A stretch of DNA of 34,287 nt from a virus (IMGVR_UViG_3300001533_001818:1-34287), one strand, 5' to 3'; shown: positions 13,802 to 33,133, numbered from the stretch's first letter. A program made the numbers and translations. Notes: generated by a model not told the origin, from the sequence alone.

Positions 13802-13829
13802 TTGACATCTAGGAGTACTCCGATAATAC
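13802..13829 (+). promoter_or_regulatory. Putative promoter overlapping the terminator
   Basis: TTGACA (13802-13807), 16 bases, then TAATAC (13824-13829). The spacer contains a perfect 10-base palindrome GGAGTACTCC (13812-13821), and CCGATAAT echoes the CCGATATAAT of the promoter at 12288. Transcription would start inside the following terminator hairpin, which would therefore act only on read-through from upstream. It could drive the radical SAM cassette. Confidence 0.45.
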
Positions 13830-13860
13830 GGTCAGGTACAACACCTGGCCGTATTTTTTT
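13826..13860 (+). terminator. Rho-independent terminator of the early block
   Basis: Stem ATACGGTCAGGT (13826-13837) and ACCTGGCCGTAT (13843-13854) pair over 12 bases with one G-U, with a 5-base loop, followed by seven T at 13854-13860. It ends the G+C-rich block just after the histone-like gene. Confidence 0.9.
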
Positions 13861-13880
13861 GTGAAGGTGGTTGTTATAAG

Positions 13881-13931
13881 CCATCGTTTCTCTGCCAATG
13901 GTGAAATAGACCATTGGCAGAGAAACGATGG
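13881..13931 (+). repeat. Perfect 21-bp inverted repeat in the leader of the radical SAM genes
   Basis: Left arm 13881-13901 and right arm 13911-13931 (begins CCATTGGCAG) are exact reverse complements, with the 9-base loop TGAAATAGA. No T run follows, so it is not a standard terminator. It lies 38 bases before ATG 13970 and is preceded by TTATAAGCC. It may be an RNase III target, a translational control hairpin or a protein-binding site. Confidence 0.85.
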
Positions 13932-13969
13932 ATTAGAAGTGGGTTTATTTAATGATACGGTGTGATTAG

Positions 13970-15025
13970 ATGAAATCTTATAAGGCAGCCGTAGGATTAC
14001 GTGGTGATTGTTTGTATTGTCCTTTGCCGTTGTCGGTCGATAGTTATTGGAATTGCTTAACCGATTGCCACCATTGTTGTTTTCGTCGGCTAAATCGCAC
14101 GTGGGGGATGGATTTGCGCCCAGCTGATCCTGAAAGTGTGGGCCGGAAGTTAGAGAACGGATTGAATAATAAAAATCCAAGGAGCAGTTTGGCTTGGGCT
14201 TTGTCATTGAAAAAAACAATACGAATAGGGAGTAGGACCGATCCATTTCAAGACGCGGAGAGGACACATCGTATCACTCATCAAATTCTTCCCATCTTGA
14301 GGCATCTACAGTGGTCTTATGTGATTCAGACTAGGCATTTGAGGAACGTATTGGCTGAAGAATCTGAGTTGGCTAAAGCTCACAAGCTCGGCCTTCTTAC
14401 TGCCCTGCCAATTATTTCTCCTGGAGCAGAATGGGATTGGGAATATTTGGAACGAAAGCGGACAACTCCTATAGAAAAACGATTGAGAATCATTCGACGT
14501 TGGGTGGGTAAAGGATGGAGTGTGGGAGTTAATGGAGAACCATTTATTCCAGGAGTTCATTCGATTGATCAATTTCGAGATATTCTTCGGCGCTTGAAGT
14601 CCGTGGGCGTAAGGAATTATAACACTTACAACCTTCATTTTAATGATCACGTGGCACGTCGGCTTCATTCTATAGGAATTGATATAGAGAAGGTTTGGGA
14701 AATGAATCAAGATGATCGTTGGCGTCCGATTCAATTGAAGCTTTGTGAGGTGTCAGAGGAAGAAGGAGTAGTGCTTGGTTGCCCTGACTTTGTTAATACG
14801 GGATTATCAAATAAACAATGTACTAATACTTGTTGTGGTATCAACGTGCCGAACCCAAGCAGGTACAACGCACACACTTGGAAGATTAAGCTTCAACACG
14901 GTGAGCGGCCGGAAGACGTAGAGGAAAACACGTGGGAAGGGATTGGTGATCGTGATCAGGGACGTGACGTGCTTTTTGGGAATAAAAGTAAGTTTTATAC
15001 AATGAAAGATGCTGGTTTGTTATGA
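13970..15025 (+). CDS. Radical SAM protein, spore-photoproduct-lyase-like, 351 aa
   Basis: Cys29-x3-Cys33-x2-Cys36 (in YWNCLTDCHHCCFRR) is the [4Fe-4S]-binding signature of radical SAM enzymes. The later segment RIGSRTDPFQDAERTHRITH resembles the conserved GxxTDPYQPxE region of the spore photoproduct lyase branch. The C-terminal part has four more Cys (LGCPDF, QCTNTCCG) that could hold a second cluster. Two early Cys (14, 17) form a CxxC. The enzyme would use S-adenosylmethionine to make radicals; the substrate is unknown and may be damaged or modified nucleic acid. The start is ATG 13970, with a weak SD. It heads a cassette containing a second radical SAM gene. Confidence 0.75.
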   Translation: MKSYKAAVGLRGDCLYCPLPLSVDSYWNCLTDCHHCCFRRLNRTWGMDLRPADPESVGRKLENGLNNKNPRSSLAWALSLKKTIRIGSRTDPFQDAERTHRITHQILPILRHLQWSYVIQTRHLRNVLAEESELAKAHKLGLLTALPIISPGAEWDWEYLERKRTTPIEKRLRIIRRWVGKGWSVGVNGEPFIPGVHSIDQFRDILRRLKSVGVRNYNTYNLHFNDHVARRLHSIGIDIEKVWEMNQDDRWRPIQLKLCEVSEEEGVVLGCPDFVNTGLSNKQCTNTCCGINVPNPSRYNAHTWKIKLQHGERPEDVEENTWEGIGDRDQGRDVLFGNKSKFYTMKDAGLL

Positions 15026-15049
15026 GTTAAATCTTTTAGGAGACCAGTC

Positions 15050-15592
15050 GTGAGTATTCGCAACATTGAGCCGAATGCTTTGACAGCGGAGGAATTGAAA
15101 GCTGTTGAAGTCTTACAGAAGGATAGTATTTGGTATGGGTTCCCTTTTGAATGGCGCCGATATATAACACCACGTCCTTTTGGAATTACATTTAAGGATG
15201 AGGTAGGCCGAACTGTTATGGCTTTGCTTTTTCCGAAGCCTGATTACCGATTGTTAGTTGTTCATCAAGCTAGCGCAAATTACCAAGCCGAAACATCACT
15301 GAATGATAAAGGTTTTGGTTTGCTGTGGAAGACGGCTTCGGACGTTCGGCCTTTATTCCTAAGCCGAATCATTCGGCGCATGGAAGAACTGGTTGGAGCA
15401 ATTCGTTTTGGGCATCCGAGTTACATTCAGCGGCGTAGGGATTTGTTTTTCAATATGGAACAGTTAGCTTTGAATCCGAAAGCAAATCCTGATTTTCAAA
15501 AGATGAGAGGATTAGTGTGGAATATTTTGGATTCGGAAGGCTTGGTTGATTGGGCTGTTGTAAGTCTTATGGAAGAATTTTTGAAATTTTAG
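15050..15592 (+). CDS. Unknown protein, 180 aa, GTG start
   Basis: GTG 15050 follows AGGAGACCAGTC. The protein contains WRRYITPRPFGITFKDEVG then MALLFPKPDYRLLVVHQA, and a helical C-terminal half (LFLSRIIRRMEELVGAIRF, GLVDWAVVSLMEEF). No Cys cluster, membrane segment or known motif is seen. It is positioned between the two radical SAM genes, so it might be a partner protein of that cassette. No function is assigned. Confidence 0.55.
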   Translation: MSIRNIEPNALTAEELKAVEVLQKDSIWYGFPFEWRRYITPRPFGITFKDEVGRTVMALLFPKPDYRLLVVHQASANYQAETSLNDKGFGLLWKTASDVRPLFLSRIIRRMEELVGAIRFGHPSYIQRRRDLFFNMEQLALNPKANPDFQKMRGLVWNILDSEGLVDWAVVSLMEEFLKF

Positions 15593-15605
15593 GATTGAGG
15601 TAGAA

Positions 15606-15830
15606 ATGGGTGTAACTTTCAAACCAATTGAAGACAAGAACAAAGAGCGTGATTGTATTCAAAAGGCGCTGCTAAAGGTTAGACGTGAGGTTGAGAAGTT
15701 GGGAGGGCCGAATGCCTTTCCAAATTCGGCTGTTTTGTCTCCATTGGAGCAGGAAACTATTTCTGAGCTTCGAGAATCTTTGTATTTTCTTGTGACTTCT
15801 CTTAACCTACGATTGAAGCGTGGCACATGA
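15606..15830 (+). CDS. Small helical protein, 74 aa, unknown
   Basis: The protein starts MGVTFKPIEDKNKERDCIQK and is almost entirely helical, ending ESLYFLVTSLNLRLKRGT. It overlaps the second radical SAM gene by 4 bases (ATGA), so the two are probably translated together. A role as an accessory subunit is possible. No family is recognised. Confidence 0.55.
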   Translation: MGVTFKPIEDKNKERDCIQKALLKVRREVEKLGGPNAFPNSAVLSPLEQETISELRESLYFLVTSLNLRLKRGT

Positions 15831-17242
15831 ATTATTATGAACTTCGAACAATTGTCAGTAAGTTGGTTCCACGCATCCAGCGTTTTGGACGACCAGTTGG
15901 AATAGCTGGTCCAGTGAAGGAAAAGGGACGAAAGCGTAATTATTCAGAGTTCAAGCTGTGGGAGCAGGAATGGGTGCCGCAGGAACGATTGTTGAACTTA
16001 GATGAGGTTAATAGCTTTGTCGAAGTTTCGTGCCGTGCGCCAGCTTGTCCGATGCCCTTGAATATTGATACGTGGGACGGTTTGCTTTGTCCTTTTGGTT
16101 GTAAATATTGTTATGCGAATGCATTTAGGGCTTCTCTTTATACTGCGTTTTTCGACAATTCTAAGACGATGGGTTTTCGTCATTGCAAACCGGATAAGTA
16201 TAAGCGTGAATTGGACGCTCTGATGAAATTGCGTCGGACTGATCCCCATTCTCTGAATGGTAAAAGTCCTGTAGCAAGGGCAATTGCGTTGGAGATTCCG
16301 ATGCGATTTGGAATTCGTTTTGAGGACTTTTTGAAGGCCGAAGCTGAATTGGGTATTAGTTTGGAGTTGTTAAACTACTTGGCTGATATTGGTTATCCTG
16401 TTATGATCAATACGAAATCAGCTTTGATAGGTAGGGACGATTATGTAGAAGCATTGGCTAGAAACATTGGGAAGGCTGCTGTTCATATTACATTGATTTC
16501 GTCCAATAATCGTTTGTTGAAACGATTAGAACCTGGAGCACCATCTTATCGTGCTCGGTTGAAGGCTATGAAGAAATTAGTTGCTGCTGGCGTACGTGTG
16601 GTGGCAAGGATAGAACCATATTTGGTATTCTTGACCGATGAACCGGCTGATGTTGAACAGTATATTCACGATCTTTTGAATATCGGAGTTCGGAATATTA
16701 CTTTTGATACGTACTCTTACACGGCTAAGAATCCAGGTATTCGCGGCAGTTTTGCCCGATTAGGATATGATTGGGATAGGTTGTTCTTGTTGGGGGCGGA
16801 CAGCCAGCCGTTAGGGTCCTTGTTGTTGGGGAAATTTATGGATCTATTCCGTGCCCATGGAATTAAGTGTTCCACCTTTGATATGGGGAACGTCCCCGAT
16901 AATGACCAAGATATTTGTTGCGAAGTTGGAGACTGGTTTGAAGGTGGATGGAACAATGGATGTGAAGTAATGGCCAGTCGTTTTATTCGGTCTAGAGAAG
17001 GCAAGCCGACGTGTTGGAAGGATTTTCAACAGTTCGTAGATGAACAAGGTGGTTTTCTTTCGAACTCTTTGCGAGAACAGGTACATGTTCTTTGGAATGG
17101 AGAAGGAAGTCAAGTGGCTTATTCTCATCTTTGGAGTCGGGGAATTCGCCCAGTAGGATGGGACGAAGATGGGATGATTTGGGCTTATGATGGAACGGAC
17201 TTTCGTCAAGAACTACTAAATGATTTGGTGAGTGAATTATGA
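15827..17242 (+). CDS. Second radical SAM protein, spore-photoproduct-lyase-like, 471 aa
   Basis: Cys88-x3-Cys92-x2-Cys95 (LLCPFGCKYCYANAF) is the radical SAM cluster site, in the C-x3-C-x2-C-Y form common in the SPL group. Downstream are GYPVMINTKSALIGRDDYVE, HITLISSNNRLLKRLEPG and AAGVRVVARIEPYLVF, which match the SPL-type barrel strands. The C-terminal third has FDMGNVPDNDQDICCEVGDW, with a Cys-Cys pair as in the first radical SAM protein. Two additional Cys at 69 and 74 lie before the core. Substrate unknown; DNA photolesion repair or base modification are the main options. It overlaps both neighbours by 4 bases. Confidence 0.8.
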   Translation: MNYYELRTIVSKLVPRIQRFGRPVGIAGPVKEKGRKRNYSEFKLWEQEWVPQERLLNLDEVNSFVEVSCRAPACPMPLNIDTWDGLLCPFGCKYCYANAFRASLYTAFFDNSKTMGFRHCKPDKYKRELDALMKLRRTDPHSLNGKSPVARAIALEIPMRFGIRFEDFLKAEAELGISLELLNYLADIGYPVMINTKSALIGRDDYVEALARNIGKAAVHITLISSNNRLLKRLEPGAPSYRARLKAMKKLVAAGVRVVARIEPYLVFLTDEPADVEQYIHDLLNIGVRNITFDTYSYTAKNPGIRGSFARLGYDWDRLFLLGADSQPLGSLLLGKFMDLFRAHGIKCSTFDMGNVPDNDQDICCEVGDWFEGGWNNGCEVMASRFIRSREGKPTCWKDFQQFVDEQGGFLSNSLREQVHVLWNGEGSQVAYSHLWSRGIRPVGWDEDGMIWAYDGTDFRQELLNDLVSEL

Positions 17243-18024
17243 GCAAGCAACGACGGGATGAAAAATCAGTAAGACGTATTGAACGTATCTTTGCGCATGC
17301 GGCTGCTTTGTCGCAGAACAGTCAATCGAAAAATACGATCTATTGTTTGGGTCGTTATGTATATGTTGTTAATCAAGATCAAACCGTTCTTTTGCGTTTT
17401 CATGTTCCAAAATCTGAAGCATTTTCTCATCCTGTTTCGTTTAGGGCCGATGATTACGAGAGTCCTGATTTTCAAGAAAAGGATGGGCGCATTGAGTTTC
17501 GGACTGAGACAGATGAATACGAGCGGGTGAAAAGTTGTGGGACTCCGGACCGTAAACCAGAGGATATTCAAACGTTGTTTAAGACAATTCTCAAAAACAG
17601 CAATGAAACGGATAGTTGGGGAGAAGCTGTTTTGTCTTCGGAAGTGATTGGGTTGTTGGAAGAATCATTGAGTCACGTAGAGTTCTCTAGCAGAAAAGGG
17701 AAACTTCGGTTGGTTCAACGAAATATCTATTCTGGAGCGACAGTAACAGTTCGCCCAAAGACATTGAAACAACGTGGTGGATTTGCTGAGTTGGACCCTA
17801 ATAGTAAGAGCGGGGATTTTGAGCCATTGGGGATGAGAACCAATGATTTTGCAGCCCTGTTTTTGTTTACATTATCAATTCGTTTTACGTTCAAACCTAA
17901 TATTGTGTTGGTGGAAAGCTCTGATCTTAGAGTAGAAATGGAAGGCTTTGTGAGCCAGTGCGTGTATGATCAGCTAGGAGAAGACCCTGATGGGCGGAAA
18001 AAGTCGAAAGAGCGGCGGAGTTAG
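17239..18024 (+). CDS. Unknown protein, possible second clamp-like protein, 261 aa
   Basis: The chain shows an N-terminal helix (RRIERIFAHAAALSQNS) followed by strands IYCLGRYVYVVNQDQTVLLRF, then a repeat of the pattern: helix VIGLLEESLSHVEF and strands KLRLVQRNIYSGATVTVRP, later FKPNIVLVESSDLRVEMEG. This helix-plus-strand order twice is what a PCNA/gp45-like two-domain clamp shows, and the gene lies two genes before the DnaN-like clamp. The similarity is only structural in pattern and I would not rely on it. Start ATG 17239 overlaps the previous gene (ATGA). Confidence 0.4.
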   Translation: MSKQRRDEKSVRRIERIFAHAAALSQNSQSKNTIYCLGRYVYVVNQDQTVLLRFHVPKSEAFSHPVSFRADDYESPDFQEKDGRIEFRTETDEYERVKSCGTPDRKPEDIQTLFKTILKNSNETDSWGEAVLSSEVIGLLEESLSHVEFSSRKGKLRLVQRNIYSGATVTVRPKTLKQRGGFAELDPNSKSGDFEPLGMRTNDFAALFLFTLSIRFTFKPNIVLVESSDLRVEMEGFVSQCVYDQLGEDPDGRKKSKERRS

Positions 18025-18151
18025 CAAAGCATTGATTAATCGTATCAAGAGTGAGAAAGGTGGTAAGTCCGGTGGACTCAAGAAAGCCGATGACGGACGA
18101 AAGAAACCAACTCTATTTGAGACGATTACAAAATCATCTGATTCCGATTAA
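17990..18151 (+). CDS. Small basic protein hidden in an overlap, 53 aa
   Basis: ATG 17990 lies 9 bases after CTAGGAGA and opens a frame of 53 codons to TAA 18149-18151. The product is Lys/Gly/Ser rich (GGKSRKSGGVSKALINRIKS, then KGGKSGGLKKADDGRKKP) and ends LFETITKSSDSD. It overlaps the end of the preceding gene and the start of the next one and fills the gap that otherwise lies at 18025-18089. The good SD and the biased composition argue that it is real. It is too short for most gene finders. Function unknown; nucleic-acid binding is a guess from its charge. Confidence 0.55.
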   Translation: MGGKSRKSGGVSKALINRIKSEKGGKSGGLKKADDGRKKPTLFETITKSSDSD

Positions 18152-18908
18152 TCCTAACTTTTGGATGTCGGATGAATATATAGACAAAGCTGGTTTGGTT
18201 CTTCAACGAAAAGGAGGTTGGTTTGGCCTGGCGTTTCCGGACGACGGTGATTGGGTGTTTCCACCACTTGAGGAAGACGTGGATGGGTTGCGTTTTGGCT
18301 CAGAGTACTGGGCTGGATTTTCTTGCGATTGTACGTTTTCTGATTCTGTGGAGGTTTTAGATCGTCAATACATTTATGATTCGGATTCATTTCACGATCT
18401 AAGAGGTCATCATTGGTCTGTATTTCGTAAGAACATTCGCAAGTGGCCGAAGTACAACTATGGTAGTTTTATACAATATTCGCCGATCTTCGGTGATTTT
18501 GAGCACAATCAAATTTCGGACCTATTAACGAAATGGGCTGATAGAATGGGGGACATTCAAGACCCAGAAGTGTTAGTTCGTTTCGTTCTTTATGGCAATA
18601 ATCGTTGGGGGTTATTTCGCAATCGGGAATTGGTGGGATTAAATGTCGCTGATTTCAATTGGCGGTACGTCAACTATCGGTACTGTATTGATAATGGAGA
18701 ACCTTTTGTTCAAGAATATCTTCGTTATCGGTTTTACATGAGTAGTTGGGTGTGGAAAGCTCGTCATCAAGCTAAATTACTAGTGAACGATGGCGGAGAT
18801 TTAGATAATGAAGGGCTGGCTCGATTTAAGAGAAAGTTGAATCCAGTTCAAGTTTTGTGGGTTCCTACAAGTAAGGAGATCAAAGACGATGCAGAAGGTA
18901 AATCGTGA
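18090..18908 (+). CDS. Acyltransferase-like (DUF2156/GNAT-like) protein, 272 aa
   Basis: The segment SVEVLDRQYIYDSDSFHDLR followed by GHHWSVFRKNIRKW matches the DUF2156 pattern, in which a tyrosine/aspartate stretch precedes LxGxxxxxxRxxIxxF. Further on, YGNNRWGLFRNRELVGLNVA looks like the strand-turn-strand that binds acyl-CoA or aminoacyl-tRNA in GNAT folds. Such proteins transfer aminoacyl or acyl groups. The substrate here is unknown. The start is ATG 18090; GTG 18051 would overlap the small basic gene more deeply. It closes the radical SAM cassette and overlaps the clamp gene by 20 bases. Confidence 0.5.
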   Translation: MTDERNQLYLRRLQNHLIPINPNFWMSDEYIDKAGLVLQRKGGWFGLAFPDDGDWVFPPLEEDVDGLRFGSEYWAGFSCDCTFSDSVEVLDRQYIYDSDSFHDLRGHHWSVFRKNIRKWPKYNYGSFIQYSPIFGDFEHNQISDLLTKWADRMGDIQDPEVLVRFVLYGNNRWGLFRNRELVGLNVADFNWRYVNYRYCIDNGEPFVQEYLRYRFYMSSWVWKARHQAKLLVNDGGDLDNEGLARFKRKLNPVQVLWVPTSKEIKDDAEGKS

Positions 18909-19923
18909 AGAACTGTTGAATCAATTGGAAATGGTTCAACCAGGGTTAAGCCCTAAAGACGTAGTGGAGCAGTCATCTTGTGTAGTGTTTGAAGACGGTC
19001 GGGTGTTTACGTTTAATGATGAAGTCTTTTGTTCGATGGATTGTTGCCTGGACGTTACAGGTGCCGTTCCAGCCAAGCCCCTTCTTGCTATTCTTCACAA
19101 GATGCCGGAAGAAACATTGAGCATTGAGGTGGCTGACGAAACGTTGGTTATCAAAGGGAAGCGTCGTCGGGCAAAACTCCGAATGGAAGCAGAAATTACG
19201 TTGCCCAAAGATTCAGTGGAGATGCCGAAGGAGGATCGTTGGAAGGAATTGCCGGAAGATTTCTGCACGGCTGTAGAAACGGTGCGAGAGTGCGCTGGTA
19301 GTGATGAAACGCATTTCAGTCTTACTTGTGTTCACGTCCATCCGGAATGGGTGGAGGCTTGCGACAATTTTCAAGTCACTCGATTCAATATTGAAACAGG
19401 CTTGAAGAAACCTGTTTTGGTTCGGAGTAAGAGTTTGATGTACGTGAGCACACTTTCCGTGGCTGAGTGGGCGAGTACAAAAGCTTGGTTACACTTCCGT
19501 ACATCTAAGGGTTTGGTTATTTCGTGCCGGAAGTATCGTGAGGATTATCCAGACCTTCAGCGCATCTTGGATGTGTCTGGTTCGCCGGCATCGTTGCCGA
19601 AGGGTTTGGCTGAAGCGGCTTCATTGGCGGAAGTTTTCAGTGCTGAAGATGCTGATAACAACGAAGTAGAAGTAAGTTTGCTTCCAGGCAAAGTGAAGAT
19701 CAAGGGTGAGGGTGCTGCTGGAAGTTATATCGAAACTAAGAAAATGTCTTATAAGGGACCATCTTTGAAGTTTACGATTTCTCCGAAGCTGTTGGTGACA
19801 ATTACCAAGCGGCATCACGAGTGTGAAGTAACGTCAGGCGCGTTGAAGGTGGATGGTGGTCGGTTCGTCTACGTTACGAGCTTGGGCCAGGTGGGCGACG
19901 GAGAAACGGAAGGCGATGAATAA
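18889..19923 (+). CDS. DnaN-like sliding clamp, 344 aa
   Basis: The protein shows the three-domain beta-clamp layout with repeated beta segments. Examples are SIEVADETLVIKGKRRRAKL with METEITLP-type strands (here RMEAEITLP), TRFNIETGLKKPVLV, and EVSLLPGKVKIKGEGAAG. DnaN-type clamps (about 360-380 aa) usually form rings that hold the polymerase on DNA; the length here is slightly short. The next genes encode DNA methyltransferase, exonuclease and polymerase, and the clamp loader follows at 24155, which fits a replisome cluster. Sequence divergence from bacterial DnaN is large, so the call rests on pattern and neighbourhood. Confidence 0.7.
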   Translation: MQKVNREELLNQLEMVQPGLSPKDVVEQSSCVVFEDGRVFTFNDEVFCSMDCCLDVTGAVPAKPLLAILHKMPEETLSIEVADETLVIKGKRRRAKLRMEAEITLPKDSVEMPKEDRWKELPEDFCTAVETVRECAGSDETHFSLTCVHVHPEWVEACDNFQVTRFNIETGLKKPVLVRSKSLMYVSTLSVAEWASTKAWLHFRTSKGLVISCRKYREDYPDLQRILDVSGSPASLPKGLAEAASLAEVFSAEDADNNEVEVSLLPGKVKIKGEGAAGSYIETKKMSYKGPSLKFTISPKLLVTITKRHHECEVTSGALKVDGGRFVYVTSLGQVGDGETEGDE

Positions 19924-20692
19924 AGGATTCTTTAGAAGTGACGAACTGGAGCACGACGCGCCTGCGCCGGATGGATGGACCGCGCCTAAGCTTCCAGATG
20001 GTTTGCCGAAGCCGACGTGGCGGGATGACCGTGCAGGAGTTGCTTTGTACTGTGGGGATTCGTTGAAGATTGTTCCAACGTTGCCCAAGGTGGATGCGGT
20101 AGTGACTGATCCGCCGTATGGTGTAGATTTGGGTGTTAATAATAATCAACACAAAGACAATACCCATCTTGGTAAACAGGGATATGATAATTACGTAGAT
20201 ACGTATGAGTCGTTTGTTTCAAAAGTGGTGCCTATTGTTAATTTGTGTCTTGATAATTGTAAATGTGGGGTTGTTTTTACTGGTCCTAATATTCATGAGC
20301 AACGAAAACCGAATGCCATGGGTGGTATTTACTGCCCAGCTGCAATTGGAAGGACGCCATGGGGGAGTAAAAACCTTCTTTCTTCGTTATTTTATGGTAT
20401 TCCTCCCAATCCAGGACGACACAGGCCTACAGTAATTCAATCTACTAGTGTATCGGAGAAGAATGGTCATCCTGTTTCGAAGCCACTAGAATGGATGGAG
20501 TGGGCGGTGGGTTTGGGAAGTTGTGTGGGTGACATCATCCTTGATCCATTCATGGGTTCGGGCACGACGGGCGTGGCGTGCGTGAATCTAGGTCGTGCTT
20601 TTATCGGCATTGAGATCAGTCCCGAATACTTTGAAATAGCTAAGCGGCGGATTCGTAAGGCTATCAATCAAAGGCTTAGGAAGGTGCGATGA
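19916..20692 (+). CDS. DNA methyltransferase, beta class (N4-cytosine or N6-adenine)
   Basis: The catalytic motif DPPYGVD (motif IV) precedes the SAM-binding DPFMGSGTTGVA (motif I), which defines the beta class of amino-methyltransferases. GKQGYDNYV and PTVIQSTSVSEKNGHPVSKP fit the region with target recognition and motif-like VxxxxxxHPxxKP. It probably modifies phage DNA to evade host restriction, since no partner nuclease is present. The start is ATG 19916, which overlaps the clamp stop; a longer frame from 19853 lies inside the clamp gene. The N-terminus MNKGFFRSDEL closely resembles that of the next gene. 258 aa is typical for an orphan phage enzyme. Confidence 0.85.
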   Translation: MNKGFFRSDELEHDAPAPDGWTAPKLPDGLPKPTWRDDRAGVALYCGDSLKIVPTLPKVDAVVTDPPYGVDLGVNNNQHKDNTHLGKQGYDNYVDTYESFVSKVVPIVNLCLDNCKCGVVFTGPNIHEQRKPNAMGGIYCPAAIGRTPWGSKNLLSSLFYGIPPNPGRHRPTVIQSTSVSEKNGHPVSKPLEWMEWAVGLGSCVGDIILDPFMGSGTTGVACVNLGRAFIGIEISPEYFEIAKRRIRKAINQRLRKVR

Positions 20693-21909
20693 GTAAAGGC
20701 TTTTTTCAGTCTTCATCTTTAGCGTCTGATCATCGTAACTACCTTCACCGACTGCCTAAGTGCGGCACTTGCGGTTTGAACCGAAATTGTCATTCGCCTA
20801 AGATGAAGCCGGATGGAGAAGGCCGCAAGCGGATTCTTATAGTAGGAGAATCCCCTGGGAAGGAGGAAGATCGTCAAGGCAAAGCTTTGGTAGGTGATAG
20901 TGGTAAATTTCTCCGTAAGCAACTAGCCAAGCTCAACGTGGACTTGAATAGGGATTGTTGGAAAACGAATGCTATACGGTGTCATCCACCGAAGAATGTT
21001 ACACCTACTAAAGAACAGCTTCAGGCTTGTCAGCCATTGTTGTGGCAGACGATTGAAGAACTAGACCCTACTGTCATCATAACGTTAGGTGGGTCGGCGT
21101 TATTCTCCGTGGTGGAACCGTTGTGGCTAGAAGACCCAGGAGCTGTGTCTAGATGGGTCGGATGGGTTATACCGGTAAGGGAACCCAACGTGAGGGTAAT
21201 GCCCACGTATCACCCAGCGTACCTGTTGCGAGAAGATCGGAATAAACCTTTACATCTTTGGTTTAAGAAGCATTTGAGGCAAGCGGTGTCTTTCGTAGGA
21301 ACCCGTCCGACTGTGCGGGACTACGAGAGTGAAGTTGAAGTGGTGATGAGTCCTCACGAAGCCGCTTTGATTCTTAAGGATTTTCGTAAGCATAAGGGTG
21401 TGATTGCTTTCGATTACGAAACGAATTGCCTTAAATGTGAACATCCAAAAGCTCGTATTTACACGTGTTCGGTTTGTTCCAATGGGGGTCGGACCATAGC
21501 TTTTCCTTGGCATGGGGAAGTTATTGACGAAATGCGAAAGTTGTTGAAGACGAAAAGCGTTGGCAAGGTAGCAGCTAATCTTAAGTTTGAGGATCGTTGG
21601 ACCCGTAGGTTTTTAGGTTATTCGGTTCGTAATTGGATTTGGGATACGATGGTGGCTGCCCACGTATTAGATTGCCGATCAGGAATTACAAGTTTGAAGT
21701 TCCAAGCGTTCGTACGATTAGGAATGAAGCCATATGATCGTCATATCCAGCCATATTTGAAAGCTTCTGATAAGAGTCAGATAAATCGGATTCATCAATT
21801 GGACCTACGAGAGTTGTTATTGTACAACGGATTGGATTCATTATTAGAATATGAGATGTATCGGCTTCAAGTTAATCAAATTAGTTCTTGGAAGCCTGGA
21901 AAATTATGA
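20689..21909 (+). CDS. Family-4 uracil-DNA glycosylase fused to 3'-5' exonuclease
   Basis: Residues about 20-190 form a family-4 UDG: Cys25-x2-Cys28, GESPGKEEDRQGKALVGDSG (residues 53-72), Cys98 and Cys114 (cluster ligands in family 4), ITLGG, and HPAYLLR (175-181). Residues about 205-395 form a DnaQ/PolA-type exonuclease: FDYETNC with Asp242 and Glu244, NLKFED (298-303), WDTMVAAH (318-324) and NGLDSLLEYEM with Asp383. It matches the N-terminal half of SPO1-type DNA polymerases, in which a UDG-like domain precedes exonuclease and polymerase. Here the polymerase is a separate downstream gene coupled through ATGA. It should remove uracil and proofread. The N-terminal MSKGFF resembles the previous gene. 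Confidence 0.8.
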   Translation: MSKGFFQSSSLASDHRNYLHRLPKCGTCGLNRNCHSPKMKPDGEGRKRILIVGESPGKEEDRQGKALVGDSGKFLRKQLAKLNVDLNRDCWKTNAIRCHPPKNVTPTKEQLQACQPLLWQTIEELDPTVIITLGGSALFSVVEPLWLEDPGAVSRWVGWVIPVREPNVRVMPTYHPAYLLREDRNKPLHLWFKKHLRQAVSFVGTRPTVRDYESEVEVVMSPHEAALILKDFRKHKGVIAFDYETNCLKCEHPKARIYTCSVCSNGGRTIAFPWHGEVIDEMRKLLKTKSVGKVAANLKFEDRWTRRFLGYSVRNWIWDTMVAAHVLDCRSGITSLKFQAFVRLGMKPYDRHIQPYLKASDKSQINRIHQLDLRELLLYNGLDSLLEYEMYRLQVNQISSWKPGKL

Positions 21910-23288
21910 AACCGACGACCAAAGAAGCTTATCAATTACTTCACGATGGCGTTTTGGCTTTGAGCGAAGTTGAAGCTAACGGCATTCGGATAGATACAGC
22001 TTACTTGCGGCATGCTATTCGGAAAACGACCAAGCGGATAGATCAAGGCGAGAAACGGCTGAGGCAAAGTTCGGTAGCGCGGGAATGGAGAAAGGCTTTT
22101 GGTAGGAAGACCAATTTTGGCAGCTACGATCAACTAGGTACGGTTCTTTTTGAGAAGATGGGTTATCTGGTTAAAGATCGGACGGCGACTGGTCGGCCTA
22201 GGACTGACGAAGAATCTTTAGGCAAAATAGACATTCCGTTTGTAAAACGTTGGTTGAAATTAGCTAAGTTGAAAAAGGCTAGAAGCACTTATTTACAGGG
22301 GATTCTACGAGAAGTTCATAACGGTTATCTTCATCCGGTTTTTTCGTTACACTTAGCTCGTACTTATCGGTCATCGTCGGATTCTCCGAATTTTCAAAAT
22401 ATTCCTAATCGCATACCTTGGATTATGAAGTTGGTGCGGCGTGCTTTTATTCCACGTCCAGGACATGCTATTGTAGAAATAGACTATGATGGTGCGGAAG
22501 TCCGAGTCTCTTGTTGTTACAACAAAGACCCTAGGTTGATAGCTTACGTCTGCGATAAAAGTTTGGATATGCATCGGGACGTGGCGAGCGAAGCATTTTT
22601 CGTTCCAGTAGAATTTGTGGATAAACCATTACGGCATATTGGTAAGAATAAGTTCGTATTCCCGCAATTTTATGGTGATTACTACATCAATTGCGCTAGG
22701 AATATGTGGGAAGCTGCGGAGCAACTACGTTGGAAATTGCCGGATGGAACGTCAATTTTTGATCACTTGCTAAAGAATGGCATTCGCAAGTTAGGTCAAC
22801 TAGATCCAGACCAAAAACCGAAGAAGCACACATTTGAAAAACATATTCAAGAAATCGAACACGCTTTTTGGTACGAACGGTTTAAGGTCTACACGGCTTG
22901 GAAAGATAAATGGTGGAATGCTTATCAGCGCAAAGGTGGTTTTCGGACCTTAACAGGATTCGTAGTAAATGGGGTTTTTAGCAAGAACGAAGTAATCAAT
23001 TCACCAGTTCAAGGTTCAGCTTTTCATTGCTTACTTTGGTCTTTGATTCGTTTGGTTTGGTGGGTTCGGAAGCATAAGAGTGGAGCAAAGATCATAGGTC
23101 AAATTCACGATAGTATCGTGGCCGACGTGCCAGAGAAGGAACTACCGGAATTCTTGGCAGTGGCTCAGCAGATTATGACTCAAGATATTCGGCGTGATTG
23201 GAAGTGGATTATTATACCGATGGAAGTAGAAGTCGAAGTAAGTCATGATGGACAAACATGGGCTGATAAGGAAAAGGTAGAGATATGA
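21906..23288 (+). CDS. polA-like: Family A DNA polymerase (polymerase domain only)
   Basis: ATG 21906 overlaps the exonuclease stop as ATGA; an upstream TTG at 21888 is unlikely. Motif A is VEIDYDGAEVR (190-200, catalytic Asp193), replacing the common DYSQIELR. Motif B is RHIGKNKFVFPQFYG (243-257), one residue longer between Lys and the YG than E. coli Pol I. Motif C is HDSIVADVP (401-409), with Ser instead of Glu after HD. TATGRPRTDEESL matches the usual TPTG-PSTNEEVL region. The 460-residue chain lacks any exonuclease domain, which is in the preceding gene. It is the replicative polymerase of this phage. Confidence 0.9.
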   Translation: MKPTTKEAYQLLHDGVLALSEVEANGIRIDTAYLRHAIRKTTKRIDQGEKRLRQSSVAREWRKAFGRKTNFGSYDQLGTVLFEKMGYLVKDRTATGRPRTDEESLGKIDIPFVKRWLKLAKLKKARSTYLQGILREVHNGYLHPVFSLHLARTYRSSSDSPNFQNIPNRIPWIMKLVRRAFIPRPGHAIVEIDYDGAEVRVSCCYNKDPRLIAYVCDKSLDMHRDVASEAFFVPVEFVDKPLRHIGKNKFVFPQFYGDYYINCARNMWEAAEQLRWKLPDGTSIFDHLLKNGIRKLGQLDPDQKPKKHTFEKHIQEIEHAFWYERFKVYTAWKDKWWNAYQRKGGFRTLTGFVVNGVFSKNEVINSPVQGSAFHCLLWSLIRLVWWVRKHKSGAKIIGQIHDSIVADVPEKELPEFLAVAQQIMTQDIRRDWKWIIIPMEVEVEVSHDGQTWADKEKVEI

Positions 23289-30175: not shown

Positions 30176-30393
30176 AACGAAAGTGTGTGTACAAGATTTT
30201 GAAGCGTTACGTTTCTGGTCGATTAACAGTTACTGCTGTGGAGAGTACATCGGAAGATCAAGTCATTAGAGTCGTTGAAAAATCTATGCAGGAGAATGGT
30301 GGGCCAGATCATGTCGTGGTCTATCGGTTAGAGGATAATGGGGAGGAAACGACTGTGTTTGCGGATGGAAATCTATGTTACGGAAGTTTCTAA
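30172..30393 (+). CDS. Small unknown protein, 73 aa
   Basis: The chain reads KRKCVYKILKRYVSGRLTVT, then VIRVVEKSMQENGGPDHVVV, with alternating strands and one helix. Overlaps at both ends (4 bases with the nuclease gene, 19 bases with the SbcC-like gene) suggest an expressed operon gene. No motif identifies its role. It could assist the recombination proteins that flank it. Confidence 0.5.
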   Translation: MKRKCVYKILKRYVSGRLTVTAVESTSEDQVIRVVEKSMQENGGPDHVVVYRLEDNGEETTVFADGNLCYGSF

Positions 30394-31406
30394 TTCGTAA
30401 TTTCCAATCACATCGTCGGCTATCGTTGGATTTGGACCCAAGGATAACTACGTTGATTGGACCGTCTGATATAGGTAAGAGTGCTGTACTTCGAGCACTT
30501 CGTTGGGCATTGATGAATGTTCCAGCAGGCCAAGCGTTCGTTCACGATGGAACGTCAACAACTTCTGTTACAATCATCTTTGATGAAGGAAGTATTAAGC
30601 GTTCTGTTTCTAAGGGGTCCCATGTTTATCAAGTAAACGATTCGGAGTATCGTGCGTTTGGTCGAAATGTACCAGAAGCTGTTCAGTCTGTAGCACGTGT
30701 TAGTAGTTTGAATTTTTTGGGCCAGCACGATTCTCCATTATGGTTTTCGGAGTCGGCTGGACAGGTAGCACAGCAGCTGAATGAGATAGTAGACCTATCA
30801 TTAATTGATCGAACAGCGTCTAATTTGGCTAGGGCTTTGCGGGAAGCTCGGACGGTGTTAGCTGAACGAGAACGAAACCAACAGGAAGCACGAGAATCCT
30901 TGCGGACCTATGACCAGGTGCCTCAAATTCGAGAAGACTACGGACGGTTAATGGGTCTATTTCGTGAAAACGCCGAGAAGGGCAGCAAAGTGTGTTCTCT
31001 CACATCCGTCGTTTCCGGCGTATCGGAAGCCATCGAGAGGTTAGATCGTGTGCGAGAAGTGTGTTTGCGTGGGAATTCTACGGTGGAAAAGGGTGAGAAG
31101 GCTGTTGAAACGGGCAAATCGGTTCGTAGGCTGGCTAAATTGGTGAAAAACGTTGTACGATTGCGAAAGTCATTACAACGTCCGATTCCGGATATGAAAG
31201 CGTTGGAAATGCGAAAAGTCAATTATCTAACGGCTGACGAAGTTGCTCAACGGCTATCGAATTTTATTGAGTTGACGTCAGTGTCTGCTAATCAAGCTGC
31301 TGAAGGTGCTAGACGTTTTAATCAGGAAATGGATCGTATTGCAAAAATTACTAAGGGTCGATGTCCACTATGCAATCAGAAGGTAAACCATTCCCAGTTG
31401 CGTTAG
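30375..31406 (+). CDS. N-terminal half of SbcC/Rad50 (gp46-like) ATPase with zinc hook
   Basis: MLRKFLIRNFQSHRRLSLDL with Walker A GPSDIGKSAVLRAL (residues 29-42) is the N-lobe of an SMC/Rad50/SbcC ATPase. A Q-loop-like FLGQHDSPLWF and coiled-coil follow to the end, where GRCPLCNQKV (Cys330, Cys333) is a zinc-hook CxxC only ten residues before the stop. The C-lobe with signature and Walker B is not here; it is in the separate gene at 32525. The nuclease partner (SbcD/gp47-like) lies in between. The complex should resect DNA ends to start recombination. Length 343 aa equals half of a normal gp46. Confidence 0.8.
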   Translation: MLRKFLIRNFQSHRRLSLDLDPRITTLIGPSDIGKSAVLRALRWALMNVPAGQAFVHDGTSTTSVTIIFDEGSIKRSVSKGSHVYQVNDSEYRAFGRNVPEAVQSVARVSSLNFLGQHDSPLWFSESAGQVAQQLNEIVDLSLIDRTASNLARALREARTVLAERERNQQEARESLRTYDQVPQIREDYGRLMGLFRENAEKGSKVCSLTSVVSGVSEAIERLDRVREVCLRGNSTVEKGEKAVETGKSVRRLAKLVKNVVRLRKSLQRPIPDMKALEMRKVNYLTADEVAQRLSNFIELTSVSANQAAEGARRFNQEMDRIAKITKGRCPLCNQKVNHSQLR

Positions 31407-32293
31407 CTATTGCTGATTTACATTTGTCCCATCGCCCACCACGTGCTAGATCTGTAGAACCGAATTGGTATGCTGCGATGGAACGGGGAATTTACGAACT
31501 ACGACAATCGCAAGAGCATTATAGTGTTCCGGTTCTTTGCGCTGGGGACGTTTTTGATCGTTGGCAAGAAATACCAGAATTAGTCAATTGGGCTTTAGAA
31601 CAACTACCGATGATGTACGCTGTTCCCGGGCAGCATGATCTTCCTAATCATAATTATGAAGAACGTTTCCGTTGTTCGTACGAAACATTGGTGCGAGCAG
31701 GTAAGATCATTCCTTTGAATCCAAATCCTACATTTATTGATTCGAATATTCCTTTGATGGTTTGCGGATTTCCTTGGGGAACGGAAATAACAAAACCGAA
31801 GTTAGAAGAAGACGTTTTTAAGATAGCTATAGCACATCAATATGCTTGGATTCCTTCTGCCAAATATCCACACGCTCCTAAAGAAGCTCGAATAAGACGA
31901 AAACGGAATAAGCTGTTGAATTTCGATGTCGTGGTGTTTGGTGATAATCATATTGGTTTCCAAAGACGAATAGGAAGTACCACAGTTTACAATTGTGGCA
32001 CGTTCTTCCGACGCACCACAGACGACATCGAGTACAGGCCACGTATGGGTTTGATCTTATCGGACGGCACTGTGCGTGAGATTCCATTGACTATTTGGGG
32101 AGATAAGATCGAAGCGTTGGAATCGGAGTTGTCTTCGGCTCACGGGCGTTTAGATGCTGACGAATTTTTGAGAGAATTGGAAGGCTTGCGTGAGAGGCCA
32201 GTAGACTACCGAGAGGCTATCACACGGTATGTTTCGGACCGTCCAATCAGTTTATTGGCTAAACGGGCATTATTAAAGGCTATGGACGAATGA
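31361..32293 (+). CDS. SbcD/gp47-like metallophosphoesterase nuclease
   Basis: Metal-binding motifs of calcineurin-like nucleases appear in order: ADLHLSH, CAGDVFDRW, VPGQHDLPNHNYEE (family usually GNHD, here GQHD), IAHQYAW and GDNHIGFQRR. This is the Mre11/SbcD/gp47 group that partners Rad50/SbcC. The start may be ATG 31361 or 31370; both overlap the ATPase half by 37-46 bases, implying coupling. 310 aa is typical. Residues after GDNHIG form the DNA-binding or capping part, with a helical C-terminus (SLLAKRALLKAMDE) that could bind the ATPase. Confidence 0.85.
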   Translation: MSTMQSEGKPFPVALAIADLHLSHRPPRARSVEPNWYAAMERGIYELRQSQEHYSVPVLCAGDVFDRWQEIPELVNWALEQLPMMYAVPGQHDLPNHNYEERFRCSYETLVRAGKIIPLNPNPTFIDSNIPLMVCGFPWGTEITKPKLEEDVFKIAIAHQYAWIPSAKYPHAPKEARIRRKRNKLLNFDVVVFGDNHIGFQRRIGSTTVYNCGTFFRRTTDDIEYRPRMGLILSDGTVREIPLTIWGDKIEALESELSSAHGRLDADEFLRELEGLRERPVDYREAITRYVSDRPISLLAKRALLKAMDE

Positions 32294-32541
32294 GTAAAGA
32301 TATTCTACAACGATACCAAAAAGCCAAGGCCGCAGCTGAACGATTTCGAGATCAAAAGGTGCGAGCAGAAGGTGCTTTGGAAGAAGCTCTTAAGCAATTG
32401 AAGGATGAGTTTAATTGTGATTCTTTGAAAGAAGCAAAAGTCCTATTGAAGAAATTACGTGTGGAAGCTGATAAGGCAGAAGACGAATTTGAAGAAGCGT
32501 TGGAAAGTTTCGAGAAGGAATGGGGTGAGACGATTGGCTGA
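32290..32541 (+). CDS. Coiled-coil protein, 83 aa
   Basis: The sequence is almost wholly helical and charged (KDILQRYQKAKAAAERFRDQ, LEEALKQLKDEF, KLRVEADKAEDEFEEALESF), with heptad-like spacing and one Cys. It overlaps the SbcD-like stop as ATGA and the C-lobe gene by 17 bases. It lies exactly where the descending coiled-coil arm of Rad50 would be expected between hook and C-lobe, so it may supply part of that arm or bridge the halves. A separate regulatory role is the alternative. Confidence 0.6.
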   Translation: MSKDILQRYQKAKAAAERFRDQKVRAEGALEEALKQLKDEFNCDSLKEAKVLLKKLRVEADKAEDEFEEALESFEKEWGETIG

Positions 32542-33133
32542 AATACCATCTAAGCTATCGCGCTTTGGGCAGAAGCTTGCTGTTTTGGAAGTTAATCGTC
32601 ACGCTGCTCGCACGTCGTTCCAAGCTGCCCGCCGATCTACAAAGCAGGCGCGTCGTTGCATATCGGCCATTGTCGAAGCGCAGGAAGTGGCGCAGGCCGT
32701 CGCCCAATCCGTCCAGGACCGAGTTCACCAGCACTTGGCTACAGTAGTGAGTCGGTGCTTGGAAGCCGTATTTGAACGTCCATACCGTTTCCGAATTATA
32801 TTTGAGCGCAAACGGGGACGCACTGGAGCACGATTGGTCTTTGAGAGGAATGGATTGGAAGTAGACCCAATGACATCGAGTGGCGGTGGTGTGGTAGATG
32901 TTGCGTCGTTTGCTTTGAGGATAGCTTGTTTGATGATTCGTCGTCCTCCGTTGCGTAGGATTTTGATATTGGACGAACCATTCAAGAGTCCATCCCCGCA
33001 CTACAGGGAACGGGTGAGGATGCTGATGGAGGAATTATCAGAGGAATTGGCCGTTCAGTTTATCATTGTGACAAACATAGACGAATTGGCCGCAGGGAAG
33101 ATCGTGGACCTATCCCTGCGGCCAATTCGTTAA
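32525..33133 (+). CDS. C-terminal half of SbcC/Rad50-like ATPase
   Basis: GTG 32525 follows AAGGA at a suitable distance; the frame upstream to 32459 has no such site. Residues 1-85 form a helix (coiled-coil remnant), then the signature motif TSSGGGVVDVASFALRIA (residues 117-134), Walker B ILILDEPFKSP (146-156, Asp150 Glu151), and IIVTNIDELA where the usual switch His is Asn. These are the C-lobe motifs missing from the gene at 30375. Together the two genes make a whole ATPase. The last 18 codons also form a perfect hairpin, and the stop meets the end of a minus-strand gene. The product is 202 aa. Confidence 0.8.
   Translation: MRRLAEIPSKLSRFGQKLAVLEVNRHAARTSFQAARRSTKQARRCISAIVEAQEVAQAVAQSVQDRVHQHLATVVSRCLEAVFERPYRFRIIFERKRGRTGARLVFERNGLEVDPMTSSGGGVVDVASFALRIACLMIRRPPLRRILILDEPFKSPSPHYRERVRMLMEELSEELAVQFIIVTNIDELAAGKIVDLSLRPIR
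33081..33130 (+). repeat. Perfect 18-bp inverted repeat inside the coding end, between convergent genes
   Basis: ACGAATTGGCCGCAGGGA (33081-33098) and TCCCTGCGGCCAATTCGT (33113-33130) are exact reverse complements with a 14-base loop. The repeat codes for DELAAGKIVDLSLRPIR of the ATPase half and ends at its stop codon, where the minus-strand gene also ends. It could act as a two-way transcription stop despite lacking a T run. Confidence 0.85.

What the first reader, a model, noticed from the sequence alone, without database searches (positions are those of the whole stretch)
13970..18908. Twin radical SAM cassette: candidate undescribed DNA repair or modification system
Two different SPL-like radical SAM proteins (Cys29/33/36 and Cys88/92/95), each with a C-terminal Cys-Cys motif, enclose two unknown genes and are followed by a clamp-like protein, a hidden basic 53-aa protein and an acyltransferase-like protein, all overlapping or closely spaced. 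Radical SAM enzymes in the SPL branch repair DNA photolesions; other phages use radical SAM and acyltransferases in base hypermodification. Two paralogs together next to the replisome genes suggests a two-step chemistry or a heterodimer on nucleic acid. The specific chemistry is unknown.
Basis: partly seen in the sequence, partly recalled or inferred. Interest (0 to 1): 0.75.

Follow-up and report, generated by a model that had tools for sequence, protein, structure and literature searches.

The report
Twin-radical-SAM phage DNA-modification cassette
An uncultivated virus, like at least 55 distinct relatives, carries a fixed block of genes that most likely decorates its DNA bases with an amino-acid-derived group at the replication fork, using two radical enzymes instead of the starting steps known from laboratory phages, which would be a new way to hide viral DNA from bacterial defences.

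Summary
Two divergent paralogous radical SAM (rSAM) genes enclose two unknown genes and are followed by a clamp-fold protein, a tiny basic protein and an aminoacyl-transferase-fold protein. The block recurs in about 70 distinct environmental contigs. Where enough sequence is held, a second rSAM lies upstream in 51/51, and clamp-fold protein, basic protein, transferase and true beta clamp lie downstream in 55/55. None of 50,697 phage records holds the rSAMs or the transferase as a clear relative. Between the rSAMs sit exchangeable tailoring enzymes (PLP, aldo/keto reductase, FAD, DUF362, methyltransferases). The PLP family's tblastn relatives among those phages are 65 records of M6/YuA type as far as listed; the FAD family's are PaMx11/Ab18-type phages. 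In M6 and PaMx11 these genes lie inside the thymidine-hypermodification cluster. Yet its entry enzymes (5-hmdU kinase, aGPT-PPlase, mostly the thymidylate-synthase-like hydroxymethylase) were not found in the twin-rSAM contigs, with positive controls. Best reading: a clamp-associated DNA base hypermodification system with twin rSAMs and an aminoacyl-tRNA-transferase-like enzyme as its core, not photolyase repair. Base and product are unknown. Novelty: new variant of a known kind.

The parts
13825..13862 (+). terminator-like hairpin plus T run closing the upstream transcription unit
   Evidence: inverted repeat 13825-13837/13843-13855 followed by a T run
13874..13938 (.). 29-nt, 93% inverted repeat with 7-nt loop directly upstream of the cassette; role unknown
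13970..15025 (+). rSAM1, radical SAM protein 351 aa; seven (near-)invariant Cys (17, 29, 33, 36, 271, 288, 289); C-terminal ..DAGLL
15050..15592 (+). u180, unknown 180-aa protein in the exchangeable 'tailoring' position; no relative in the other loci
15606..15830 (+). u74, unknown 74-aa protein in the exchangeable position; no relative found
15827..17242 (+). rSAM2, radical SAM protein 471 aa; Cys 74, 88, 92, 95, 364, 365 invariant (348 in 48/53)
   Evidence: inteins inserted at this Cys motif in relatives
17239..18024 (+). u261, PCNA/9-1-1-fold protein (second clamp-fold protein, helices not basic)
   Evidence: AF2 pLDDT 87.5; Foldseek 2.8e-9; Z 15.2, rmsd 4.2, to 1plq over 217 residues
17990..18151 (+). 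b53, basic 53-aa protein, near-invariant N-terminus (M)GGKSRK[STA]G, variable linker, LF-type hydrophobic C-terminal motif
18090..18908 (+). ACY, dual-GNAT protein of the DUF2156/MprF/FemX aminoacyl-tRNA-dependent transferase fold
   Evidence: AF2 pLDDT 93.2; 2hqy Z 20.1 (rmsd 3.8, 244 res), MprF Z 15.2, FemX Z 12.3
18889..19923 (+). replication sliding clamp (bacterial beta/DnaN type), always downstream of ACY in the order
   Evidence: phrog_947 4.9e-31; PDB DnaN 1.7e-22
19916..20692 (+). N6/N4 DNA methyltransferase with N-terminal MNKGFF motif
   Evidence: PF01555 8.8e-26; sequence read
20689..21909 (+). family-4-like uracil-DNA glycosylase fused to 3'-5' exonuclease, N-terminal MSKGFF motif
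21906..23288 (+). family A DNA polymerase domain
   Evidence: PF00476 5.5e-50

Best explanation
This is a phage DNA base hypermodification system, tied to the replisome, that builds an amino-acid-derived group on a base (thymine most likely) after or during replication. The fixed core is rSAM1 + rSAM2 + u261 (a clamp-fold scaffold) + b53 (a small basic adaptor) + ACY (an aminoacyl-tRNA-transferase-fold enzyme). Steps, all inferred except where marked: (1) The two rSAM enzymes use 5'-deoxyadenosyl radicals to open an unreactive position of the base or to rearrange the adduct (shown: the rSAM cysteine motifs; inferred: an auxiliary Fe-S cluster, and the reaction). (2) ACY transfers an amino acid from aminoacyl-tRNA to the modified base (shown: fold; inferred: donor and acceptor). 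(3) Exchangeable enzymes encoded in the block sculpt the group: a PLP enzyme of the M6 family, or an AKR with a methyltransferase or an FAD enzyme, or DUF362; a TET-associated glycosyltransferase in some (shown: gene content and homology). In the window this place is taken by u180/u74, of unknown activity. (4) b53, and in relatives some tailoring methyltransferases, carry terminal GFF/GLF/LF peptides like the N-terminal peptide of the phage polymerase, so they probably dock on the beta clamp and bring the chemistry to new DNA; u261 probably serves as an assembly platform and not as a DNA-encircling ring. The purpose would be protection of virion DNA from restriction and similar defences.
For: Linkage: second rSAM upstream in 51/51 and u261, ACY, CLAMP downstream in 55/55 distinct contigs; b53 in 50 by the strict motif plus 5 with a GTG or extended start. 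Independent scans with b53 and u261 hit only twin-rSAM contigs or two truncated pieces of the same block. DNA as substrate: the PLP family (23/47 contigs) equals the PLP enzyme of phage M6 (HMM 5.7e-85, 37.5% identity; Schiff-base Lys conserved in all 32), whose DNA contains 5-(2-aminoethyl)dU (PMC6449724) and whose rSAM and PLP genes belong to the modification cassette (PMC9476957). The 65 phage records with a relative are of M6/YuA-like type as far as listed. The FAD family matches the PaMx11 enzyme beside aGPT-PPlase, acetyltransferase, 5-hmdU kinase and thymidylate-synthase-like genes. TAGT glycosyltransferase 1.2e-47 in a relative. M6 rSAM aligns with rSAM1 over 255 columns, 97%, 1.4e-10. 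Near-exclusive tailoring sets: PLP 23, AKR 10, DUF362 6 of 47, one overlap. Replisome coupling: DnaB upstream and beta clamp, polymerase and clamp loader downstream; u261 has a clamp fold; terminal peptides concentrate on polymerase, DNA methyltransferases, tailoring methyltransferase and b53. ACY fold.
Against: No chemistry was measured. The window itself lacks the PLP/FAD/AKR enzymes that give the best link to DNA; the link comes from relatives. M6 and PaMx11 tailoring enzymes act on adducts derived from 5-hmdU, and the 5-hmdU route was not found here, so the substrate base could differ. An MprF/FemX fold can also act on peptides, lipids or protein N-termini. u261's helices are not basic, so it is not shown to touch DNA. 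The terminal-peptide pattern was defined after inspection. Most contigs are fragments, so absences are weaker than presences.
Confidence: 0.68

Rival explanations
1. Peptide or protein modification: b53 (or u261) is the substrate. The rSAMs, the FemX-like transferase and the tailoring enzymes decorate the small basic protein, as in RiPP or scaffold-peptide pathways, to make a protein tag or a small molecule.
For: b53 is small, its first ~10 residues are near-invariant and it lies next to ACY in nearly all contigs. rSAM + aminoacyl-tRNA-dependent transferase + methyltransferase/FAD sets also occur in peptide natural-product pathways (own knowledge). ACY resembles the aminoacyl-tRNA-dependent peptide synthase Sbb17 (Z 12.1, rmsd 3.8 over 222 residues).
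Against: The C-terminus of b53 is not conserved as a C-terminal scaffold would be, and the start varies (M, V, MA). The tailoring PLP and FAD enzymes are those of DNA hypermodification phages, TAGT is a DNA-type glycosyltransferase family, and the block is embedded between DnaB and clamp/polymerase.
Confidence: 0.1
2. DNA repair: two SPL-like rSAM enzymes repair UV photoproducts or other base lesions of the viral genome, tethered to a special clamp.
For: Both rSAMs lie in the broad SPL-like branch (PA0069/Rv2578c relatives; one relative scores 0.0014 with Pfam SPL). A 9-1-1-like clamp fold and replisome context fit repair.
Against: No SPL family match in the window proteins. Four further conserved Cys in rSAM1 and three in rSAM2, whereas SPL has one cluster (own knowledge). 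Repair does not explain the conserved aminoacyl-transferase fold or the exchangeable PLP, FAD, AKR, methyl- and glycosyltransferase genes. M6's own rSAM, annotated 'DNA repair photolyase', belongs to its modification cassette.
Confidence: 0.07
3. tRNA hypermodification: the rSAM pair, methyltransferases and aminoacyl transferase modify a tRNA, as in wybutosine-like pathways.
For: rSAM, methyl- and aminocarboxypropyl-type steps build hypermodified tRNA bases (own knowledge); ACY's fold class binds aminoacyl-tRNA.
Against: Fixed place in the replication operon, clamp fold and clamp-type peptides, and the M6/PaMx11-type enzymes, which act in DNA pathways.
Confidence: 0.05
4. Variant thymidine hypermodification that still starts from 5-hmdU: the hydroxymethylase, kinase and aGPT-PPlase are too divergent to be detected or are supplied elsewhere, and the twin rSAM block only adds later steps.
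For: Shared PLP and FAD enzymes and a related rSAM. A full-length thymidylate synthase lies in one contig and partial hits in two.
Against: 5-hmdU kinase and aGPT-PPlase not found in 25 records while both searches rang in M6 and PaMx11; 21/24 records, the 172-kb one included, lack any thymidylate-synthase homologue.
Confidence: 0.1

Closest known systems
Thymidine hypermodification cassette of Pseudomonas phage M6 (5-NedU) and relatives (YuA, SN1)
   Same: PLP enzyme family (37.5% identity, nearly full length), an rSAM related to rSAM1, position in the replication region upstream of DNA polymerase, amino-acid-type tailoring.
   Different: M6 has one rSAM plus 5-hmdU hydroxymethylase, 5-hmdU kinase and aGPT-PPlase1/2. 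The twin-rSAM cassette lacks detectable homologues of the kinase and PPlase and mostly of the hydroxymethylase, and has rSAM1+rSAM2, u261, b53 and ACY instead.
Thymidine hypermodification cassette of Pseudomonas phage PaMx11/Ab18
   Same: FAD-dependent oxidoreductase family (PaMx11 against the FAD profile 5.7e-43), found in a minority of twin-rSAM cassettes together with AKR.
   Different: PaMx11 has aGPT-PPlase, 5-hmdU kinase and thymidylate-synthase-like genes in the cluster and no AKR is annotated there.
Spore photoproduct lyase (SPL) and the PA0069/Rv2578c radical SAM family
   Same: CxxxCxxC rSAM motif; best named matches of both proteins are PA0069/Rv2578c.
   Different: Far below those families' cut-offs; extra conserved cysteines; different gene context.
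Radical SAM mobile pair (NCBIfam TIGR04470)
   Same: rSAM2 matches it weakly (3.7e-9); the family name records a paired occurrence.
   Different: 36 bits against a cut-off of 410. Whether those pairs carry u261, b53 or ACY partners was not tested.
MprF / DUF2156 / FemX aminoacyl-tRNA-dependent transferases
   Same: ACY has the dual-GNAT fold, Z 11-20.
   Different: 8-15% identity; no membrane part; substrate unknown.
Sliding clamps (PCNA, 9-1-1, DnaN)
   Same: u261 fold Z about 14-15 over ~217 residues; weak profile similarity to the phage's own DnaN-type clamp (hhalign 61%).
   Different: The four helices that line the ring in clamps carry net negative charge in the family, and invariant polar residues (H146, E148, Q160, D203, C241) are unusual for a clamp.

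Membership tests
Radical SAM superfamily | CxxxCxxC [4Fe-4S] motif in the Radical_SAM domain | tested here: met
   rSAM2 PF04055 9e-10; C88/92/95 in 53/53. rSAM1 C29/33/36 in 56/56, related to rSAM2 by profile 1.3e-18
Spore photoproduct lyase | match to the SPL family models | tested here: not met
   no SPL model among Pfam hits at E<=1 or NCBIfam hits at E<=0.1 for the window proteins; one relative only 18 bits against a cut-off of 27
Spore photoproduct lyase | a single Fe-S cluster (no further conserved cysteine set) | tested here: not met
   rSAM1 has (near-)invariant C17, C271, C288, C289; rSAM2 C74, C364, C365, mostly C348; that these bind a second cluster is inferred
5-hmdU-based thymidine hypermodification (M6/ViI/PaMx11 type) | 5-hmdU DNA kinase (PF18723) | tested here: not met
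   0 of 25 records incl. the window; controls M6, ViI, PaMx11 positive; records may be incomplete
5-hmdU-based thymidine hypermodification (M6/ViI/PaMx11 type) | aGPT-PPlase amino-acid transferase | tested here: not met
   M6 gp51 finds M6 and PaMx11 (3.9e-93) but no twin-rSAM record; it also misses ViI, so divergent forms could escape
5-hmdU-based thymidine hypermodification (M6/ViI/PaMx11 type) | thymidylate-synthase-like hydroxymethylase | tested here: not met
   absent from the window record and 20 of 23 relatives; one full-length and two partial hits
5-hmdU-based thymidine hypermodification (M6/ViI/PaMx11 type) | amino-acid tailoring enzymes (PLP, FAD, rSAM, acyltransferase) | tested here: met
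   in relatives: PLP 23/47, FAD 2/47; rSAM in all; the window itself has rSAM and ACY but neither PLP nor FAD
DNA hypermodification system in general | non-canonical nucleoside in virion DNA | not testable with these tools
   needs virion DNA or heterologous expression and LC-MS
MprF/FemX/DUF2156 aminoacyl-tRNA-dependent transferases | dual-GNAT fold | tested here: met
   pLDDT 93; Z 20.1 (2hqy), 15.2 (MprF), 12.3 (FemX); HMM 1.1e-4 to 2hqy
MprF/FemX/DUF2156 aminoacyl-tRNA-dependent transferases | uses aminoacyl-tRNA as donor | not testable with these tools
   biochemistry needed
Sliding clamp (u261) | PCNA-type fold | tested here: met
   Foldseek 2.8e-9; Z 15.2, rmsd 4.2 over 217 residues
Sliding clamp (u261) | basic helices lining a DNA-encircling ring | tested here: not met
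   mean helix charges -1.1, -0.8, -0.1, -0.8 over 54 sequences; ring formation not tested
Sliding clamp (18889-19923) | DnaN/beta family match | tested here: met
   1.7e-22 to DnaN structures; phrog_947
RiPP precursor / scaffold peptide (b53) | conserved leader plus modified core or conserved attachment end | tested here: inconclusive
   N-terminus near-invariant, C-terminus variable with LF-type motif in 35/53; no modification data

The most novel reading that the evidence does not exclude
A third route into phage DNA hypermodification, besides hydroxymethylated dNTPs and TET/JBP oxidation: twin radical SAM enzymes functionalise a C-H bond of an ordinary base directly in DNA. An aminoacyl-tRNA-using transferase then attaches an amino acid, so that DNA is aminoacylated from the translation machinery. 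The complex is assembled on a repurposed clamp-fold protein and recruited to the replication clamp by a 50-residue adaptor.
Probability: 0.33. Interest if true: 0.92.

Novelty: new variant of a known kind. Interest (0 to 1): 0.8.

Why it matters
If true, it reveals a widespread hypermodification chemistry that is missing from cultured phages: its rSAMs and its transferase have no clear relative among 50,697 phage records. It would replace the 5-hmdU/kinase/pyrophosphorylase entry steps by radical chemistry and possibly by aminoacyl-tRNA. It shows a fixed core with swappable tailoring enzymes, predicting several distinct modified nucleosides that can be looked for by mass spectrometry. It also adds a dedicated clamp-fold protein and a tiny clamp-adaptor candidate, which would tie DNA modification physically to the replication fork. 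For phage-host defence it would be a new way to make DNA unreadable to restriction enzymes and other nucleases.

Tried and rejected
Photolesion repair by SPL was rejected as the main reading (extra conserved cysteines, no SPL family match, tailoring genes).

'u261 is an ordinary second sliding clamp' was weakened: the helices are acidic, not basic. Its profile finds no clamp by sequence in the PDB, only weak similarity to the phage's own beta clamp.

N-terminal glycine acylation of b53 (an NMT-like idea from MGGKS) was set aside because several relatives start MAGGKSRK or with GTG.

A 5-hmdU start was tested and not found. TET/JBP was searched but nothing rang anywhere, so that absence is not evidence.

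rSAM profiles find no solved rSAM structure. Phage-collection searches with the rSAMs and ACY gave nothing, or weak partial hits in two unannotated human-fecal phage records without the rest of the block. Genome contigs gave only two MAG contigs that carry the same phage block.

u180 and u74 gave no hit in Pfam, PHROGs or the other loci. Alignment A8 contained a stray one-residue row and was replaced by A9. A b53 DNA pattern and a 54-row u261 alignment could not be scanned and were replaced by A5 and A4. The central paper on thymidine hypermodification pathways (PMC8989533) is not held.


Full report
1. The observation. Everything is on the + strand with several stop/start overlaps. The stated cysteines are present. 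The block begins after a terminator-like hairpin and a 29-nt inverted repeat. It runs straight into the replisome: DnaN-type clamp, DNA methyltransferase, UDG-exonuclease, DNA polymerase A, Dam-type methyltransferase and clamp loader. The record is an IMG/VR virus contig of 34,287 bases, probably a fragment.

2. It is conserved. Profile scans of viral contigs with four- and five-row alignments of rSAM2 and rSAM1 returned 76 and 55 loci; the bacterial/archaeal genome collection gave only two contigs, both carrying the phage block. After collapsing near-identical contigs, 70 distinct ones remain. The usual order is DnaB - rSAM1 - variable genes - rSAM2 - u261 - b53 - ACY - CLAMP - polymerase - clamp loader. 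With at least 6 kb upstream of rSAM2, 51/51 have a second rSAM. Of the 55 contigs with at least 6 kb downstream or a visible clamp, all have u261, ACY and CLAMP; b53 is found by the strict motif in 50, and the other five encode it with a GTG or MAGG start. Scans with b53 and u261 as independent queries return only contigs of this set plus two truncated ones that again show u261, ACY and CLAMP around b53. The hidden 53-aa protein is therefore a real, conserved gene. Among 50,697 phage records there is no ACY relative and only weak partial rSAM hits in two unannotated fecal phages.

3. The core proteins. The rSAMs are ancient paralogues (hhalign 99%, 1.3e-18). Their nearest named families are PA0069/Rv2578c, and for rSAM2 also the 'radical SAM mobile pair B', far below all cut-offs. 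In 56 rSAM1 sequences seven cysteines are (near-)invariant (17, 29, 33, 36, 271, 288, 289). In 53 rSAM2 sequences 74, 88, 92, 95, 364 and 365 are invariant and 348 is in 48. The positions correspond between the two proteins (CP[LM]PL ... CxxxCxxC ... C ... CC), which suggests an auxiliary cluster (inference). ACY, modelled at pLDDT 93, is a dual-GNAT protein: Z 20.1 to a DUF2156 protein, 15.2 to MprF, 12.3 to FemX, 12.1 to the aminoacyl-tRNA-dependent peptide synthase Sbb17. The folds that use aminoacyl-tRNA are thus the best guess for its donor. u261, pLDDT 87.5, has the PCNA/9-1-1 fold (Foldseek 2.8e-9; Z 15.2 over 217 residues). Yet the helices that line the hole in clamps are net negative across 54 sequences, so a scaffold role is more likely than DNA encirclement.

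4. The exchangeable middle. In 47 contigs that span the block, the genes between DnaB and clamp include PLP fold-II enzymes (23), a methyltransferase-like family f11 (14), aldo/keto reductase (10), DUF362 (6), FAD oxidoreductase (2), GNAT, glycosyltransferases including TAGT (PF20691, 1.2e-47 in L050), and DNA methyltransferases. PLP, AKR and DUF362 exclude each other with one exception. The window carries u180 and u74 here, without known relatives. A fixed core with swappable tailoring enzymes is the pattern of modification pathways, not of repair.

5. The link to DNA. The PLP profile matches the PLP enzyme of Pseudomonas phage M6 over its full length (5.7e-85). tblastn finds this family in 65 phage records; those listed are Pseudomonas phages of the M6/YuA type and Sphaerotilus phage SN1, and the tallies add Bordetella, Rhizobium, Stenotrophomonas and Pseudanabaena phages. 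The Schiff-base lysine (M6 K36) is conserved in all 32 aligned. M6 DNA contains 5-(2-aminoethyl)deoxyuridine (PMC6449724), and the SN1 genome paper lists rSAM and PLP genes in the M6-type modification cassette (PMC9476957). The FAD profile matches PaMx11 gp47 (5.7e-43), which lies beside aGPT-PPlase, acetyltransferase, 5-hmdU kinase and thymidylate-synthase-like genes. M6's rSAM, annotated 'DNA repair photolyase', aligns with rSAM1 over 255 columns (97%, 1.4e-10).

6. What is missing. The 5-hmdU kinase was not found in 25 twin-rSAM records and the M6 aGPT-PPlase finds nothing in them, while the controls rang in M6 and PaMx11. Thymidylate-synthase homologues are absent in 21 of 24. So the late enzymes are shared with thymidine hypermodification, but the known entry steps are not seen. 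The twin rSAMs and ACY are the obvious candidates to replace them (inference).

7. Coupling to replication. A terminal peptide of the form [GPN][FL]F or GLL occurs at the N-terminus of UDG-polymerase (35 of 83 proteins of that family, which includes the separate polymerase halves). It also occurs at the C-terminus of the f11 methyltransferase (7/16), DNA methyltransferases and some rSAMs, but in 0/60 ACY, 0/58 CLAMP, 0/57 DnaB and 0/34 PLP proteins. b53 has an [LF][LF] pair in its last 22 residues in 35 of 53 distinct sequences, against 8.4 expected by shuffling and never above 18 in 2,000 shuffles. I read these as clamp-binding peptides. The pattern was chosen after looking, and binding is not shown. 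In the window: rSAM1 ends ..DAGLL, b53 has KKPTLFETI.., the methyltransferase begins MNKGFF, UDG-exo begins MSKGFF.

8. Verdict. The most likely function is an amino-acid-type DNA base hypermodification made at the fork by a new enzymatic entry route. Shown: gene order, predicted folds, motifs, family links and the absence pattern. Inferred: substrate base, radical reaction, donor, docking. Which base is modified cannot be told; thymine is favoured only through the PLP and FAD families. It should not be filed as a member of the 5-hmdU-based family, because defining genes were tested and not found, though it probably works like one in its later steps.

Noticed in passing
L061:7292-10125, L066:8320-10113, L052:7543-8076, L055:7730-10125, L068:8428-10125: rSAM2 is interrupted by inteins at or next to its CxxxCxxC motif (breaks at about profile positions 87-98) in these and several more contigs; in L061 and L055 the intein halves lie on two separate ORFs, which looks like split, trans-splicing inteins.
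   Followed up: partly
window 13874-13938: 29-nt, 93% inverted repeat with a 7-nt loop between a terminator-like hairpin and rSAM1; possible regulatory site.
   Followed up: no
L019:11754-13268 and L138 (between ACY and CLAMP): A third, rSAM2-like radical SAM gene in two contigs.
   Followed up: no
window 20689-23288: Uracil-DNA glycosylase + 3'-5' exonuclease and the polymerase A domain are two overlapping genes here but one fused protein in several relatives.
   Followed up: no
L050:16742-17870, L131, L026, L015: TET-associated glycosyltransferase with a constant ~98-aa partner in contigs of this set without a TET/JBP hit; the TET/JBP search had no positive control.
   Followed up: partly
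L012, L026, L040, L073, L076, L078: Contigs with DUF362 in place of PLP/AKR carry a divergent, longer rSAM1 (about 377-409 aa), perhaps a different substrate.
   Followed up: no
window 30375-33133: SMC-like ATPase halves and a Mre11-like nuclease ORF (SbcCD-like, read from sequence only) further downstream in the same operon direction.
   Followed up: no
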